A stretch of 38,944 nt of DNA from Myxococcales bacterium (GTDB lineage: Bacteria; Myxococcota; UBA727; VGSZ01): positions 1-38,944 of the forward strand of contig JAHFED010000057.1 in the NCBI GenBank assembly GCA_023248635.1, given 5' to 3'. Position 1 is the stretch's first letter, and each line of letters starts with the position of its first letter. The notes below the pieces were generated by a model. It was not told where the DNA came from. It did not search any database and saw nothing but the letters and a program-made list of their open reading frames with translations. This document shows, in pieces, positions 48-6,464 of this stretch. The position numbers and the translations under genes were made by a program.

Positions 48-56
48 GAAACACAA

Positions 57-98
57 TCCCTGGGTTCAGTTGAGTGCAAACTCAACTGAATCCAGGGA
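57..98 (-). terminator. Terminator of the kinase/ATP-grasp operon
   Basis: A 19-bp inverted repeat (57-75 and 80-98) with a four-base loop begins directly after the stop codon at 99-101. All positions pair, one as a G-T pair. In the minus-strand direction it is followed by the moderately T-rich stretch ATTGTGTTTC. The stem is long and the T tract is imperfect, so this is a good but not perfect Rho-independent terminator. It marks the 3' end of the minus-strand cluster. Confidence 0.75.
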
Positions 99-2831
99 CT
101 AGGGCGAGGACGATCGAGAGCCCAAGGCGCCCGTCAGCTCGTGCAGCGCGTCCCACGCCGCCGACCTCGGCAGGGGGCGCACCTCGAACGCGAGCGATCG
201 AGCTGCGTCGAGATGAGCCGCTGCACCCTGCCCGCCACGCAGTGCCCATTGGCCCCGCAGGCAGGCGCAGCGCAGCAGCATGGCGAGATCAAAGAGCGTC
301 CGCGCGCGCGCCTCGGCTTCGTCGAGCAGGGGCTCGCTTTGGTCGAGCTCAGCGATGAGAAAGAGGGCTTCGAGGGCGGCGTCGGCGGTGGATCCAGCCA
401 GCACCTCGTCACCGCCACCGAGGCGCGGGCCATCGAGCAGCCTCAGGGCCGCCTGCGCCTCGATGCGCGCGGCCGCCAACGCGCCGCGCGCCCGCTCCAC
501 CAGGGCGAGCTCGATGCGGGCGAGGCCTTGGTTGTGGGCTTGGGGGTCGACGACGATGGCTTCTTCGAGCAGCGCTCGGGCCCCGGCGTGACGCCCTGCC
601 AGCCGCCAGATGCGCGCGCACTGCCGCAACAGGGGGGCGGTGCGGACCGGAAGGAGCGCGAGCCCGGCGGCGTCGACGGCTTCGTCGGTTTGGCCGGCCG
701 CAAGCAGCGCTTCGGCGAGGTCGACCCGGGCCGCGCCGACTTGAGCGCGCGCACCCTCTTTTTCGAGCAGGGCGACGGCTTCCGCCAGGAGCGCACGCGC
801 CTCCAAGCCTTCGCGCAGCGCGCATACACCCAACAGGTGCACATTCACGCCATCGCGCCCCAGGCGGACGCTGTCGTTGGCAAAGCCGCGCGCCCGCCGC
901 ACGTCGCCGCCGTCCAGACACAGCGCGCTCAACTGGGCCAGCACGAGCGAGCGCGCCGCCGCAGCAGCAGTCGGCGACGTCGTTGCCTGCAGCGCCCTGC
1001 GCGCACTCTCAAGGGCCGCCATCGTGAGACCGGCATGACGCTGGGCCTCGGCGAGGGCGGTGCAGGCGGCAACGAGACGGTTGGTGTCGCCCGAGGCTTC
1101 GGCGTCGTCGACGGCGCGTCGACGGTCGAGCAGCGCCTTTGCCTGCGTGGTGCGCAGCGCGTACCGGTGGGTGTGCGCGGCGGGGGCGCAGACGACGCCG
1201 ACGACGTCGTCGGTGCGCTGCTCGTGGCTGGGCCGCAGGTGCCAACCAGCTCCATCCCTGATCAAGACCCCGCGTGCTGCCGCCGTGCGCAGGCCCTCGA
1301 TGAGCAAGGCTGGGATGCCCCGGGCTGCTGGCACCAACGCCTCGACGAGCTGCGGCTGCACGCGAGCCGGGGGGGCCAGCGCCAAGGCATCGGCCAGCAT
1401 GTGCCCCACAGCGCCGTCGTCGAGGGGACCGACGTCGACGACGAGGGCCGGGGCGGTTGCCGATTTCTGCAGCTCGGGGGGCGCGACACTCGAAGTCGCG
1501 AGCACGATGAGATCCAGGGTCGCGAGCGCCGCACCCGCGACCAAAGCAGCCAAGAAAGCGCGGCTGTCCTCGTCGGCCTGCTCGAGGTCATCGAGCAGCA
1601 GAACCAGCGGCGCGGCGGTGGTGAGTCGGTGCAGGGCGGCGAGCACGTCGTCGGCGCCGCCGCGGGTCCCCAGGGCGTCGTGAAAGGGTTGCAGCGACGG
1701 GCCGTGGTTGCATGGCCCCACCAGCACGCGCGCTCCGGTTTTGGCGATGCGGCGAGCCAGCTCTTTGGCCAGGCGCGTCTTGCCGATGCCGCTGTGGCCC
1801 TGCAGCAGCACCAGCGCTCCCGCGCCGTCGACGGCAGCGATGCGGGCACCGACCTCGGCCATCAGGGTTTCGCGACCCACGAAGCGAGGGTGGTAGAGCG
1901 TGGGCCGTGGTGGTGGGCCGTCGTCGTCGACGTCCGCTCCGAGGGCCAGGAGCGCGGCGGCGACGTCGACGGCGTGGCCCAGGCGGTGGGCTGGATGTTT
2001 CTCGAGCAGGCTGCTCACCAGGGCCTGCAGCGCAGCGGGGATGGCGGCGACGCGATCTTCCAGCAGGGGCGGCGGCGCATGCAGGTGTTGCAGCAGCAGG
2101 TCGCTCGGATTGCGGGCGCTGAAGGGATCGGCCCCGGTCAGCAGGCGCATGCACAGGCAGCCGAAGGCGTAGAGATCGGCGCGGGCATCGACGACGTCGC
2201 CAGCGATTTGCTCCGGCGCCATCACGCTGGCGGTGCCGGCGCGGTGCAGGGTCAACGCGGCGGCTTCGGTGGCGTTTTTCGGATCGCGAACGACGACGAC
2301 GCCGAAGTCCACCAACACCGGCTGGGCGCTTCCCGCACGCACCAGCAGGTTCGCGGCGCTGAGATCGCGATGAACGAGCCCCTCGCCGTGGACGTGGGCC
2401 AAAGCCAGGCTCACGCGGCGCAGCAGGGTGAGCACCCGCCGCAGGTTGGCGTCGTCGATGCGGGGACGCACGCCCGCGGTGACCGGGTTCCAGAAGCGTC
2501 GGGCGTGGGCGACGATCGGCTCGCCCTCGACGAGCTCCATGGCAAACCACGGCACGCCAGCGTCGACGCCGCTGTCGACGACGGCAACGATCCCCGGGTG
2601 CGTTAGGCGTCGCAGCGCCTGCACCTCACGCCGAATCGCGTCGATGGCGACCGCACCAGGGCCCGCGCCTTCGGCCGCAGCGCGTGAGGCGCTCGTCAAG
2701 GGCATGCGGGGATCGGTGGCGAGCATCTTGACGGCGACGAAAGCGCCGGTGTCTTCGTGCGCGGCGCGATACACCACACCGGCGGCTCCGCGCCCCAGCT
2801 CCTCGTAGACGAAATAGGGACCCACCTTCAC
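99..2831 (-). CDS. Ser/Thr protein kinase fused to AAA ATPase and TPR-like region
   Basis: The product has 910 residues. An N-terminal Hanks-type kinase domain (about 5-300) has a glycine-rich loop at 13-18, VAVK with Lys35, HRDL with catalytic Asp156, DFG with Asp175 and MAPEQ in the activation segment. An AAA/STAND-like ATPase follows: the FVGRE entry motif, Walker A GHSGIGKT with Lys351 and Walker B LVLLLDD. The last 350 or so residues are Ala/Leu-rich helices of TPR type. No membrane segment is seen, so it is probably cytoplasmic. Kinase-ATPase-TPR architecture is common in myxobacteria and usually serves signalling. The start is GTG; the stop of the upstream ATP-grasp gene lies 18 bases away, so the two are likely co-transcribed. 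A link between kinase and modification enzyme is inferred from position only. No strong ribosome binding site is visible. Confidence 0.93.
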   Translation of the reverse strand: MKVGPYFVYEELGRGAAGVVYRAAHEDTGAFVAVKMLATDPRMPLTSASRAAAEGAGPGAVAIDAIRREVQALRRLTHPGIVAVVDSGVDAGVPWFAMELVEGEPIVAHARRFWNPVTAGVRPRIDDANLRRVLTLLRRVSLALAHVHGEGLVHRDLSAANLLVRAGSAQPVLVDFGVVVVRDPKNATEAAALTLHRAGTASVMAPEQIAGDVVDARADLYAFGCLCMRLLTGADPFSARNPSDLLLQHLHAPPPLLEDRVAAIPAALQALVSSLLEKHPAHRLGHAVDVAAALLALGADVDDDGPPPRPTLYHPRFVGRETLMAEVGARIAAVDGAGALVLLQGHSGIGKTRLAKELARRIAKTGARVLVGPCNHGPSLQPFHDALGTRGGADDVLAALHRLTTAAPLVLLLDDLEQADEDSRAFLAALVAGAALATLDLIVLATSSVAPPELQKSATAPALVVDVGPLDDGAVGHMLADALALAPPARVQPQLVEALVPAARGIPALLIEGLRTAAARGVLIRDGAGWHLRPSHEQRTDDVVGVVCAPAAHTHRYALRTTQAKALLDRRRAVDDAEASGDTNRLVAACTALAEAQRHAGLTMAALESARRALQATTSPTAAAAARSLVLAQLSALCLDGGDVRRARGFANDSVRLGRDGVNVHLLGVCALREGLEARALLAEAVALLEKEGARAQVGAARVDLAEALLAAGQTDEAVDAAGLALLPVRTAPLLRQCARIWRLAGRHAGARALLEEAIVVDPQAHNQGLARIELALVERARGALAAARIEAQAALRLLDGPRLGGGDEVLAGSTADAALEALFLIAELDQSEPLLDEAEARARTLFDLAMLLRCACLRGQWALRGGQGAAAHLDAARSLAFEVRPLPRSAAWDALHELTGALGSRSSSP

Positions 2832-2849
2832 GACGTCATTCTGACGCGT

Positions 2850-4613
2850 TCAGCGGAAAATGTAGAAAGCCGTGACGCTGAAGCGGCGGCCGCGGCGCAC
2901 TTCGCAGACCTCATGGGGTCGGTTCCTCGGCGGAAAGATCAGCAGCGAGCCGTAGAGCGGCGGAATGACCAGGCTGGGGTCGGCGCCTTCGTCGTCCGCG
3001 GGAAAAACGAGCTGGCCGCCGTCGACGTCGACGCTGAAGTTGTAGATGGCCGCCACGCCTTCGTCGTCGGTGTCTGTGTGCAGCGGGAAACGTTCTCCGG
3101 CGATCATGCGGGACACCTGCACCTGGATTTCGGCCAGGTGTCGGTCGTGGCGCACGCCGACGAGCTTGAGGTGCAAGCGGGCCGCAGCCGGGGTCGAGAG
3201 CCAGGCGACAAATTCGCGCAGCGCGCCTTGTTGCTCGTCGTGGGGGGCGATGTGCAGCGGGTAGGCAATGTGGTGATGGGGGCGAAAGCGCGCGCGCTTC
3301 AACTCGGAAAGCAGGGTGGCCGCCCGTCCCTGTGCCAACGACGACGACAGAAACAGGTGGGGCGGCTCCGAGCCCGCATAGTGCGCGCGCGACTCCTCAA
3401 GGGCGGTGCTGGTGAACAAGTCGGGCTCGAGCCAGCCCGTGTCCGTCGGGCCCCCACCAAAGACCGGGTCGACGGCGAGATCGGCACAAAACAACGCGGC
3501 CGCGGAGGCCTCGGCAGCGGGCACGACGTCGACGACGCTGCCTGCTGGGCGCGGCCCGAGATCGAAGGATCGTGCGCGGGCAACGAGGTGGGCGGCCAGG
3601 GTCGTGACGATCTTTCTCTGTCCGGCTCCGGCGAGGGAATCGTAGGGCTCCAACGCCGGCGTGGGATTGCACTCGAGGACCACGACGTCGTCGCCGCCTC
3701 CGCGCACATCGACGGCGGTGAAGACCAGGCCCAAGGCTCGCGCGGCACGCACAGCGACATCGGCCACCTCGGCAGGCGGTCGGGCGCGCTTCACGGCGGC
3801 CAGGTTCTCGCGGGCATCGACGACGCCTCTGGTTGGCAAGGCGAAGGCCGCGACCACGACGCCGTCGAGCACGTAGACGCGCCATTCGTCTTGGCGCTCG
3901 TCGCGCACCACACGCTCCTGAAAGAGCGCGGGTGCGGCCCCGAGCTGCCAGAGCCGAGCAAGGTCGTCGTCGACGAAGAGCCTGGCTTGGGCTCCGCCGG
4001 CCACGGGCTTGTAGACCCCCTCGCTGCCGCGCCCGGCCAGCTCCGACAAGAAGGCTGCGGCGGCCGCGGCCCCGCTGGTGGCCAACGACTTCGGCACCGG
4101 AATGTGCGCCCGCGCCAGCAAGGCCAGCTGCCACGGCTTCTGCAGGTGCAGCTCGACGGCTCCTGGGGCATTCACGAAGGCGCGCTTGCCGTCGTCGAGC
4201 ACCTGCAGAGCTGCTCGCAGCAGGGCGTGTCGTTCACGGGCTGCTGCCCAGCGATCACGCCAGTCGGCAAATCTTTGGGCGGCGATCTCGTCCGGGCCTG
4301 GAACCAAGGGCGTGAAGGGGAGATGGCGAAGGTAGACGGCGCCGGCGTCGTCGAGGGCCCTCTCGCCCCACCACACCCGCGCTGTTGCTGCGTCGATCTC
4401 CAAGCGCAGCGGAAGGGACGAAGTGGGATCGATGACAAACGAATCGCCGCCAGCGCGTTCAACGCTGGCGGCGATGCGTTCGACCTGCGCGTCAGCGCCG
4501 ATGAGAGCGACGCGGGGCCGGGGAGAGGGCGTGCTCAGGACCAGGCTCAGCTCTGGGAGACGCCACCGGACTTGTAAGCGCCGTCTTTGTCGAGGAGCGC
4601 GTTCACCATCCAC
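2850..4613 (-). CDS. ATP-grasp ligase fused to 2OG-Fe(II) dioxygenase
   Basis: The product has 587 residues and two enzyme halves. Residues about 33-370 form an ATP-grasp ligase: pre-ATP-grasp start PRVALIG, then FVNAPGAVELHLQKPWQ, VPKSLATSG, GVYKPVAGG, LFQERVV and the metal-binding VVLECNP segment. This order matches MvdC/MvdD-type macrocyclases of microviridin-like graspetides more than RimK or DdlB. The C-terminal half has a prolyl-hydroxylase-type 2OG-Fe(II) fold: HTD (His512, Asp514), distal His567 and 2OG-binding Arg577 in RRFSVTAF, so all cofactor ligands are present. The fusion suggests two-step modification of a peptide or protein, probably the product of the preceding gene, which it overlaps. 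The start is uncertain: GTG at 4611-4613 gives a 67-base overlap, and no ATG, GTG or TTG occurs in frame nearer the fold, so a rare CTG start near 4549 is also possible. Confidence 0.9.
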   Translation of the reverse strand: MDGERAPRQRRRLQVRWRLPELSLVLSTPSPRPRVALIGADAQVERIAASVERAGGDSFVIDPTSSLPLRLEIDAATARVWWGERALDDAGAVYLRHLPFTPLVPGPDEIAAQRFADWRDRWAAARERHALLRAALQVLDDGKRAFVNAPGAVELHLQKPWQLALLARAHIPVPKSLATSGAAAAAAFLSELAGRGSEGVYKPVAGGAQARLFVDDDLARLWQLGAAPALFQERVVRDERQDEWRVYVLDGVVVAAFALPTRGVVDARENLAAVKRARPPAEVADVAVRAARALGLVFTAVDVRGGGDDVVVLECNPTPALEPYDSLAGAGQRKIVTTLAAHLVARARSFDLGPRPAGSVVDVVPAAEASAAALFCADLAVDPVFGGGPTDTGWLEPDLFTSTALEESRAHYAGSEPPHLFLSSSLAQGRAATLLSELKRARFRPHHHIAYPLHIAPHDEQQGALREFVAWLSTPAAARLHLKLVGVRHDRHLAEIQVQVSRMIAGERFPLHTDTDDEGVAAIYNFSVDVDGGQLVFPADDEGADPSLVIPPLYGSLLIFPPRNRPHEVCEVRRGRRFSVTAFYIFR

Positions 4614-5959
4614 GCGGCCTGGCCGGTCTGCCAGTGGTTCACGTGCAGCACTGCGCGGAACTTGCCGTTCTCTTCGCGCACGCCGACGAGGTCGACGGTG
4701 TGGGACTTCGAGATTGCATGGCCCGAGCTCTTGCCCGCCTTCTCGGCCACGGCGAAGATCTCAGCGTAGGTGTCGAGCTTCTTGAGCACCTTCGAAGGCA
4801 CGGGGCCCCGCGTCCAAAAGCCCGTCTGCAGCTTTCCTGCATCGTCGACGGACGCGTGAATCTTCCCGAGCGACTTCTGTCGGCCGTCCCACGAGGGCAC
4901 GTTGTAGGTGGCGTCGAAGCCGCCGTCTTTGCGCTGCTTGAGCTCCTCGAAGGAGATCTTGCCGTCGCTGCGCGACTTGGGAAATCCAAGGCGCTCGGCG
5001 AAGGCGTCGGCGCTGCGGGTGAGGATGCCCGCCAAGTGTGTGCCCGGCTTGGGCTCGATGACCGGAAGGGGATGGGCAGGCGATCCCTTGAACGAGCCAC
5101 TGAGGAACTTGCCACCGACGTCGAGGAGGGCGGTGACTTCGCCGCGTTTTTGGTCCGGCGACAAAAAGTGGTGCACGCTGAGCGTGACGTGAAGCTTGCC
5201 GTCGCTGCGCTCGACCATGTTCTTGAGCGTCACACCATCAGAGCGTGAGAGCTTGGCCCCGGCCTGCTCGGCGATGTCGCGGGCGTGGGCCTGCACGGTC
5301 GTCGCCATCTTCATGCCGGCAGCGCCGATGTCGAAGGGTCCCGCCCAGCTCTTGCCGCCCCGCAAGGATTCGCTCTCGAGAAAGAACTGCGTGGCCTTGT
5401 TGGGATCGCTTGGATGGTTGAGCTGGCCGGCTTGCACGAACACGCGCAGGGCGTTGCCGTCGCGGGGTCGGTCGTCGCGGATGGTGACGCTCTCGAAGTT
5501 CTGCGACCCGATGGGCTGGCTCTGGATGAAGCCGCCGGCCTTGAACTTGGGGGCCTTGTCCATCATCTGCAGCGCGAGGCGGAACTGGTCCACTTTCTCG
5601 GGCGTGAAACTGGTCTTCGGCAGCGGATCGTCCGCGCGGATCTTGAAGATGACGGGGCCCGTGCCCGGGTCGTCGGCGCGGATCTTCATGATGATGCGGC
5701 CGCTGTCGCGCGCGGGCAGCCCACGCACGTTCGGGTTCACATGCGACTCCTGGATGGCCTCGCTCAGACGGTTGACCACCCGCGTCAACGACGACTTCTC
5801 GCCCGTGGTCTTGGGCTTCAGCCCCTCCAGCTGCGTCAGGGTCTTGGTCGCGCTCATGATGTCGATCTGCGAGACGCCGCCGCTCTGGTTGGTTTCGAGG
5901 CTCTTGGCCATCGAGTTGCCGGCTTTGACGAGGTTCGTGTCGTACTTTTGGATGGTCAT
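4547..5959 (-). CDS. Repeat protein with two KIRADDP motifs; candidate modification substrate
   Basis: The product has 470 residues and I do not recognise the family. The ATG at 5957-5959 is chosen because GGGAGA lies eight bases upstream. The first 85 residues are polar with no signal peptide or membrane segment. Two near-identical decapeptides follow, IIMKIRADDP (89-98) and VIFKIRADDP (103-112), exactly 14 residues apart. From about 117 to the end there appear to be four diverged repeats of roughly 75-100 residues, each a helix followed by strands, with recurring DGK, valine/histidine strands and LLD-GK-SG turns. Lys and Asp spaced by four residues in each motif resembles the K-x-P-S-D core of microviridin. 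With an ATP-grasp/2OG enzyme overlapping its 3' end, the protein is a plausible substrate; that role is inference. A structural repeat protein unrelated to the enzyme is the alternative. Confidence 0.85.
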   Translation of the reverse strand: MTIQKYDTNLVKAGNSMAKSLETNQSGGVSQIDIMSATKTLTQLEGLKPKTTGEKSSLTRVVNRLSEAIQESHVNPNVRGLPARDSGRIIMKIRADDPGTGPVIFKIRADDPLPKTSFTPEKVDQFRLALQMMDKAPKFKAGGFIQSQPIGSQNFESVTIRDDRPRDGNALRVFVQAGQLNHPSDPNKATQFFLESESLRGGKSWAGPFDIGAAGMKMATTVQAHARDIAEQAGAKLSRSDGVTLKNMVERSDGKLHVTLSVHHFLSPDQKRGEVTALLDVGGKFLSGSFKGSPAHPLPVIEPKPGTHLAGILTRSADAFAERLGFPKSRSDGKISFEELKQRKDGGFDATYNVPSWDGRQKSLGKIHASVDDAGKLQTGFWTRGPVPSKVLKKLDTYAEIFAVAEKAGKSSGHAISKSHTVDLVGVREENGKFRAVLHVNHWQTGQAAWMVNALLDKDGAYKSGGVSQS

Positions 5960-6011
5960 GTGTTTCTCCCGAGGTCTGTAGCGCCCAGCCCGACGGGTTG
6001 GCGCGGCGGTG

Positions 6012-6464
6012 TCACCACTTCTTCTTCTTCGGCTTTTCGAGTGTTTGCAGGCGGGCCATTGCGCCCGGGATGGTGCCCTGGGGCCGCTCGCCTCCCCCCA
6101 ACACACCCGTCGCCGCCTTCTGGCCGGCGAATTGTTCGAAGGGGTTGGCAGTGACCGCAGCCCCAGCATTGAGCTCCCGCCAGGCCTCCTGCAGCGCGGC
6201 CGCGAGGGCGGGGTTGGGCGGGTGCACTTGGTACCAGCGGTCGAAGGCGGCGACGACGTCGTTGGGCCCCATGCCCGCCGTCACGCCGGCCTGCTTTCCG
6301 GCAGCGGCGAAGATGCCGATGGTCGCCTCGTCCAGATCGGCCAGATCCACATCCATGTGGAGCAGGGTCCAGGGCAAAAAGTGCTCGATGTCGGCGATGG
6401 GAAAGCGCGGCATGTCGTCGTCGTCGAGGAACACCGACATCAAGCGCTCGAAGGAATCAGCCAC
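6012..6464 (-). CDS. Unknown 150-residue protein, first gene of the ATP-grasp cluster
   Basis: No family is recognised. The predicted protein is soluble, begins MADSFERLMSVFLDDDDMP with an acidic run, has a helical middle (AAFDRWYQVHPPNPALAAALQEAW) and ends in the basic tail KPKKKKW. No signal peptide is seen. The start is GTG at 6462-6464; an in-frame ATG at residue 9 is an alternative and neither has a strong ribosome binding site. The next gene begins 52 bases downstream on the same strand, so the two are probably co-transcribed. It could be a partner, recognition or immunity-type protein of the modification cluster, but nothing in the sequence decides this. Confidence 0.75.
   Translation of the reverse strand: MADSFERLMSVFLDDDDMPRFPIADIEHFLPWTLLHMDVDLADLDEATIGIFAAAGKQAGVTAGMGPNDVVAAFDRWYQVHPPNPALAAALQEAWRELNAGAAVTANPFEQFAGQKAATGVLGGGERPQGTIPGAMARLQTLEKPKKKKW

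What the first reader, a model, noticed from the sequence alone, without database searches (positions are those of the whole stretch)
99..6464. Candidate undescribed modification system: KIRADDP-repeat protein with ATP-grasp/2OG-dioxygenase fusion and kinase
Seen: four minus-strand genes in close array end in a terminator. The third encodes an ATP-grasp ligase with MvdC/MvdD-like segments joined to a 2OG-Fe(II) domain with all ligands present (His512, Asp514, His567, Arg577). The second encodes two exact KIRADDP heptapeptides 14 residues apart, where Lys and the first Asp stand at i and i+4, as in the K-x-P-S-D core of microviridin. Known: graspetide ligases join Lys, Ser or Thr to Asp/Glu side chains. 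Inference: the ligase may link Lys92 to Asp96/97 and Lys106 to Asp110/111, and the oxygenase may hydroxylate a residue in the motif, such as the Pro that follows. The substrate would be a large repeat protein, not a short peptide, and a kinase may control the process. I know of no described system with this set.
Basis: partly seen in the sequence, partly recalled or inferred. Interest (0 to 1): 0.9.

Follow-up and report, generated by a model that had tools for sequence, protein, structure and literature searches.

The report
Fused-enzyme corallotide-type protein stapling locus
A myxobacterial gene set appears to encode one fused enzyme that ties a lysine to an aspartate inside a large protein and then hydroxylates that bond; the chemistry was described in 2026 for Corallococcus "corallotide", but the fused enzyme, the large substrate and the host lineage are new.

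Summary
The genes are as described: a 470-aa protein with KIRADDP at Lys92 and Lys106, then a 587-aa ATP-grasp/2OG-Fe(II) fusion with H512, D514, H567 and R577 present, then a kinase. The claim that no such system is known is out of date. Carter et al. 2026 (PMC13097080) described corallotide (graspetide group 15): CorB joins Lys to Asp at i+4 in KIVADDP-type motifs, then CorC, a 2OG oxygenase that binds and activates CorB, hydroxylates C5 of the bridged Lys. The published CorA fragment is in a Corallococcus exercitus locus fetched here. The window ligase falls in the CorB clade (99/99), the oxygenase is 31-45% identical to CorC-type proteins, and all 14 CorBC loci checked have one KxxxD-repeat protein just upstream of CorB. 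Best reading: a corallotide-type system with CorB and CorC fused, making two 5-hydroxy-isopeptide staples. New here: the fusion, occurrence outside Corallococcus, a substrate ending in three tandem alpha-beta4 modules, a conserved 150-aa partner, and no CorD. Hydroxylation is predicted on Lys, not Pro. The kinase has no support beyond adjacency: about 100 kinases in this genome, none beside the sister locus. New variant of a known kind; nothing was tested biochemically.

The parts
6012..6464 (-). p150: 150-aa conserved partner protein of unknown function (GTG start)
   Evidence: 53% identical homologue directly upstream of the substrate homologue in same-family genome G003; family members elsewhere precede other ~455-aa proteins
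4547..5959 (-). substrate (CorA-like): 470 aa, predicted helical N-terminus (1-75), two KIRADDP motifs, C-terminal region (about 205-470) of three alpha-beta4 modules
   Evidence: 48% identical homologue in G003
5666..5686 (-). KIRADDP motif 1 (Lys92...Asp96); predicted Lys-Asp isopeptide with 5-hydroxylation
   Evidence: chemistry by homology to corallotide
5624..5644 (-). KIRADDP motif 2 (Lys106...Asp110); the copy unchanged in the G003 homologue
2850..4613 (-). fused CorB-CorC enzyme: ATP-grasp graspetide synthetase (about residues 30-349), linker (350-390), 2OG-Fe(II) oxygenase (about 390-587)
99..2831 (-). Ser/Thr kinase with AAA ATPase and TPR-like region, 910 aa; 18 bp after the fusion gene; link to the system unproven
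54..101 (-). strong hairpin after the kinase, no U-run; possible terminator or other inverted repeat

Best explanation
This is a corallotide-type (graspetide group 15) modification locus in which the synthetase (CorB) and the 2OG-Fe(II) hydroxylase (CorC) are one protein. The helical N-terminus of the 470-aa substrate probably serves as leader or docking domain (inferred). The ATP-grasp half phosphorylates Asp96 and Asp110 and joins them to Lys92 and Lys106 as i/i+4 isopeptides; the 2OG half then hydroxylates C5 of each bridged Lys, net -2 Da per motif (inferred from homology to experimentally solved corallotide chemistry). Fusing the two makes permanent the CorB-CorC complex that activates CorB in Corallococcus (inferred). 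The product is a large protein whose segment between the helical domain and the folded C-terminal modules carries two rigid staples; p150 is probably a partner or chaperone of the substrate. The staples' cellular role is unknown; protecting or stiffening the linker of an exported or inhibitor-like protein is my guess.
For: Carter et al.: Lys-Asp(i+4) isopeptide then Lys C5 hydroxylation in KIVADDP, and CorC binds and activates CorB. Published CorA fragment found in C. exercitus locus L078. Ligase in the CorB clade, 99/99 and all 200 bootstraps, apart from the plesiocin-type and other Myxococcota ligases compared. CorC-type identity 31-45% with H-x-D...H...R invariant. ATP-grasp residues kept, including D266-x-R268 aligned to the DFR of PsnB. 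Nearest solved structure is PsnB (7drm). Exact KIRADDP copies beside CorB/CorC in L085; 14/14 loci have the motif protein upstream of CorB; KIRADDP kept in the G003 homologue.
Against: No biochemical data for this locus. Only two motifs in a 470-aa protein, against 4-8 in most other precursors. Leader homology to CorA is not established (hhalign probability 7.5% without the motif). The sister locus has the ligase but no adjacent 2OG gene (none found in that genome by profile), and that ligase lacks a segment. CorD is absent, though it is also missing from the flanks of other non-Corallococcus CorBC loci. The fusion's start codon is uncertain.
Confidence: 0.83

Rival explanations
1. The fusion is a graspetide synthetase/hydroxylase of this clade, but with different products: for example hydroxylation of another residue (Pro98, Asp97), or ligation only at the second, conserved motif.
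For: Oxygenase identity to CorC-type proteins is only 31-45%; motif 1 is absent from the G003 homologue; R within the ring and the flanks differ from KIVAD.
Against: Active-site residues and the KxxxDDP frame are kept throughout the clade; KIRMDDP motifs are native in CorA proteins of Corallococcus loci, so R in the ring is normal.
Confidence: 0.12
2. Kinase-controlled system: the adjacent 910-aa Ser/Thr kinase-ATPase is a dedicated part that regulates or adds a third modification.
For: Same strand, 18-bp gap; it lies on the non-syntenic side of the M17 boundary, with the other three genes.
Against: Over 100 kinase-domain matches in the 6.5-Mb genome; no kinase next to the sister G003 locus; none noted at the CorBC loci inspected except a generic one about 4-5 kb away in G005. 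The kinase's C-terminal half has no match in four relatives.
Confidence: 0.15
3. The locus is decaying: the fusion and substrate are remnants of a laterally acquired cluster and the enzyme is inactive.
For: Patchy distribution: absent from both same-genus genomes; the G003 ligase is shortened and lacks a 2OG partner.
Against: Intact ORFs, codon-position bias throughout, all catalytic residues kept, p150 and substrate 53% and 48% identical between genomes with the motif unchanged.
Confidence: 0.05

Closest known systems
Corallotide (graspetide group 15; CorABCD, Corallococcus exercitus; Carter et al. 2026, PMC13097080)
   Same: CorB-clade ATP-grasp synthetase, CorC-type 2OG-Fe(II) oxygenase with the same ligands, large substrate with K-I-x-x-D-D-P motifs, predicted helical N-terminal domain, same gene order substrate-synthetase-oxygenase
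   Different: Synthetase and oxygenase fused; substrate 470 aa with a large C-terminal domain and only two motifs; extra partner p150; no CorD; different order of Myxococcota
Plesiocin synthetase PsnB (PDB 7drm)
   Same: Closest solved structure to the ATP-grasp half; conserved catalytic residues
   Different: Acts on TTxxxxEE motifs to make esters (my knowledge), no oxygenase; PsnB itself was not in the tree, but the ligase beside a TTxxxxEE precursor (L037) falls outside the CorB clade
Microviridin MvdC/MvdD (MdnB/MdnC)
   Same: Same ATP-grasp superfamily; side-chain cross-links
   Different: Different motif and ring pattern; NCBIfam MvdC score 34 against cut-off 425
SmaO/SmaX oxygenases of group 18 graspetide clusters (cited in PMC13097080)
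   Same: Oxygenases in a graspetide cluster
   Different: They act on Asp of the linear peptide, not on a cyclised Lys; separate proteins

Membership tests
Graspetide group 15 (corallotide type) | ATP-grasp synthetase of the CorB clade with catalytic residues | tested here: met
   Tree 99/99, all bootstraps; invariant K, R, D, N residues
Graspetide group 15 (corallotide type) | CorC-type 2OG-Fe(II) oxygenase with HxD...H and 2OG-binding Arg | tested here: met
   31-45% identity, invariant ligands; Pfam 2OG-FeII_Oxy_3; here fused to the synthetase
Graspetide group 15 (corallotide type) | Substrate with repeated KxxxD motifs next to the enzymes | tested here: met
   Two KIRADDP; control count over 14 loci
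Graspetide group 15 (corallotide type) | Helical N-terminal leader homologous to CorA 1-86 | tested here: inconclusive
   Three helices predicted, residues 5-73 (low confidence); leader-only profile match 7.5%
Graspetide group 15 (corallotide type) | CorD beta-lactamase-like gene | tested here: not met
   Only beta-lactamase match in the genome is on another contig. The paper found CorD nonessential for cyclisation and hydroxylation, and it was not found in the flanks of other non-Corallococcus CorBC loci, so I treat it as accessory rather than defining
Graspetide group 15 (corallotide type) | 5-hydroxy Lys-Asp isopeptide product | not testable with these tools
   Needs mass spectrometry and NMR
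GAK system (TIGR04356) | GAK-family ATP-grasp | tested here: not met
   15.8 bits against cut-off 300
Microviridin MvdC family (TIGR04185) | Score above equivalog cut-off | tested here: not met
   34.1 bits against 425
PepSY/cystatin-like domain (substrate C-terminus) | Fold or profile match | tested here: inconclusive
   YpeB C-terminal domain (three PepSY domains, my knowledge) top Foldseek hit, E 1.8e-3, from a low-confidence model, Z 5.6 at rmsd 9.9; no Pfam match

The most novel reading that the evidence does not exclude
A stapling system for a folded protein rather than a peptide natural product: a bifunctional synthetase-hydroxylase puts two 5-hydroxy-isopeptide staples between the helical domain and a triple-module C-terminal domain of a chaperone-paired (p150) protein, so that the mature product is the whole stapled protein, not a released peptide.
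Probability: 0.35. Interest if true: 0.72.

Novelty: new variant of a known kind. Interest (0 to 1): 0.52.

Why it matters
Carter et al. found that CorB needs CorC as an activating partner, and their main text mentions no fused form; a natural fusion is independent evidence for that complex and a possible single-gene tool for installing a hydroxylated isopeptide staple. It also takes group 15 beyond Corallococcus, suggests CorD is dispensable for the core system, and shows that such staples may be placed in large multidomain proteins, which makes the open question of what corallotide-type products do more testable.

Tried and rejected
Fold search of the substrate (single-sequence AlphaFold2, pLDDT 53.7): only weak hits (YpeB C-terminal domain, an Aspergillus extracellular metalloproteinase chain, latexin) and no profile match, so no fold is claimed. 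Leader homology to CorA: 84% with the motif, 7.5% without: not claimed. Kinase link: not supported. GAK and microviridin membership: failed on score. Frameshift artefact as cause of the fusion: not supported. Literature: one paper on corallotide; no paper holds 'KIRADDP'; the 2022 graspetide census has no mention of oxygenases. Only open-licence papers were searched, so an unseen description remains possible.

Full report
OBSERVATION. The four minus-strand genes are real: p150 (6012-6464), a 470-aa protein (4547-5959), a 587-aa fusion (2850-4613) and a 910-aa kinase (99-2831). KIRADDP occurs at Lys92 and Lys106; its degenerate DNA pattern occurs only at those two places in the whole 6.5-Mb assembly. 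The fusion carries a RimK-type ATP-grasp region and a 2OG-Fe(II) domain with H512, D514, H567 and R577. Codon-position GC runs unbroken through the junction, arguing against a frameshift artefact. The 'terminator' is a strong hairpin without a U-run.

WHAT IT IS. Carter et al. 2026 (PMC13097080) solved corallotide from Corallococcus exercitus: CorB forms an isopeptide between Lys and the Asp four residues on, in KxxxD motifs (NMR fragment NPDDGVIVKIVADDPLR), and CorC, a 2OG-Fe(II) oxygenase, then hydroxylates C5 of that Lys. CorC also binds and activates CorB. That exact fragment is found here in C. exercitus locus L078, so the reference system is in hand.

The window's ATP-grasp half falls in one clade with all CorB proteins (99/99, 100% of 200 bootstraps), apart from the ligase beside a plesiocin-like TTxxxxEE precursor and from other Myxococcota ligases. 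Its oxygenase half is 45, 43, 43 and 31% identical to CorC-type proteins, with every ligand invariant. The nearest solved structure of the ligase is the graspetide synthetase PsnB, by sequence (E 7e-31) and by predicted fold (model mean pLDDT 67).

In 14 of 14 CorBC loci exactly one ORF out of 2,017 has clustered K[IVLM]xxD[DES]P motifs, and it lies just upstream of CorB on the same strand (in L081, upstream of the first of two ATP-grasps). Many of these loci are closely related Corallococcus, so the count is not 14 independent events; but the rule also holds in genera g51, g70 and g71 and in MAG Co_bin.297. Locus L085 has repeated exact KIRADDP copies.

RELATIVES. In same-family genome G003 (L028) the trio p150-substrate-ligase recurs at another chromosomal place: p150 53% and substrate 48% identical, with one KIRADDP in an unchanged VIFKIRADDP decapeptide, but no adjacent oxygenase and no kinase. 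Neither same-genus genome has the fusion. In same-genus G002 the neighbouring M17 aminopeptidase and the next two genes are syntenic while the block at 99-6464 is missing, so the block looks like an island; its other edge lies beyond the contig. CorC-type genes occur in 24 of 195 genomes of the phylum sampled, in 6 genera, which extends the paper's Corallococcus-only range. CorD is found in Corallococcus-type loci and not in the flanks of L081, L083-L087, L026 or L028, nor in the window.

SUBSTRATE. The single-sequence model is poor (pLDDT 53.7) but suggests three N-terminal helices, strands around the motifs, then three alpha-beta4 units. The internal repeat is supported by sequence: R1/R2 score 83 against shuffles 26 +/- 5, maximum 55. 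A PepSY or cystatin-like fold is only a lead. p150-like genes elsewhere in G003 and in this genome precede other ~455-aa proteins without a ligase, suggesting p150 is a general partner of such proteins to which stapling enzymes were added (inference).

MECHANISM. Shown: gene content, motif conservation, catalytic residues, clade membership. Inferred from homology: Lys92-Asp96 and Lys106-Asp110 isopeptides, C5 hydroxylation of the bridged Lys, net -2 Da per motif, acting in that order. Inferred: the fusion fixes the CorB-CorC complex. Unknown: cellular role, export, whether the staple-bearing part is released.

KINASE. Over 100 kinase-domain matches in the genome make adjacency weak evidence; the sister locus lacks one. 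It may be co-transcribed (18-bp gap) but a role is not shown.

VERDICT. The fusion, the large modular substrate with p150, and the wider host range are the new parts.

Noticed in passing
L081:3-3071 (G005, MAG Co_bin.297, contig end): Hybrid graspetide locus: one precursor mixes plesiocin-like TTxxxxEE units (TTEAVGEE, TTMAVGEE) with KVRADDP motifs, followed by two different ATP-grasps (one CorB-clade, one grouping with plesiocin-type ligases) and a CorC-type oxygenase. The precursor is cut by the contig end.
   Followed up: partly
6012-6464; L104:7316-7771; L109:7205-7840: p150-like genes directly precede different ~455-aa proteins elsewhere, without a ligase, like a partner-protein family with several clients.
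   Followed up: partly
L090:7212-8288 (G003): Paralogue of the substrate's C-terminal module without KIRADDP.
   Followed up: partly
L085:9310-9633: Very short CorA-type protein of Pro-Gly-Lys spacers (GKPGKPGKP) and repeated KIRADDP copies, lacking the long helical leader; relevant to the collagen-like behaviour noted for corallotide.
   Followed up: no
L028:8441-9280: CorB-clade ligase in G003, shortened and without an oxygenase, next to an intact KIRADDP protein; may ligate only, or be degenerate.
   Followed up: partly
54-101: Very stable hairpin at the kinase stop codon with no U-run.
   Followed up: partly
L037:8970-9920 (G092): Plesiocin-like precursor with more than ten TTxxxxEE units next to an ATP-grasp gene.
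   Followed up: no
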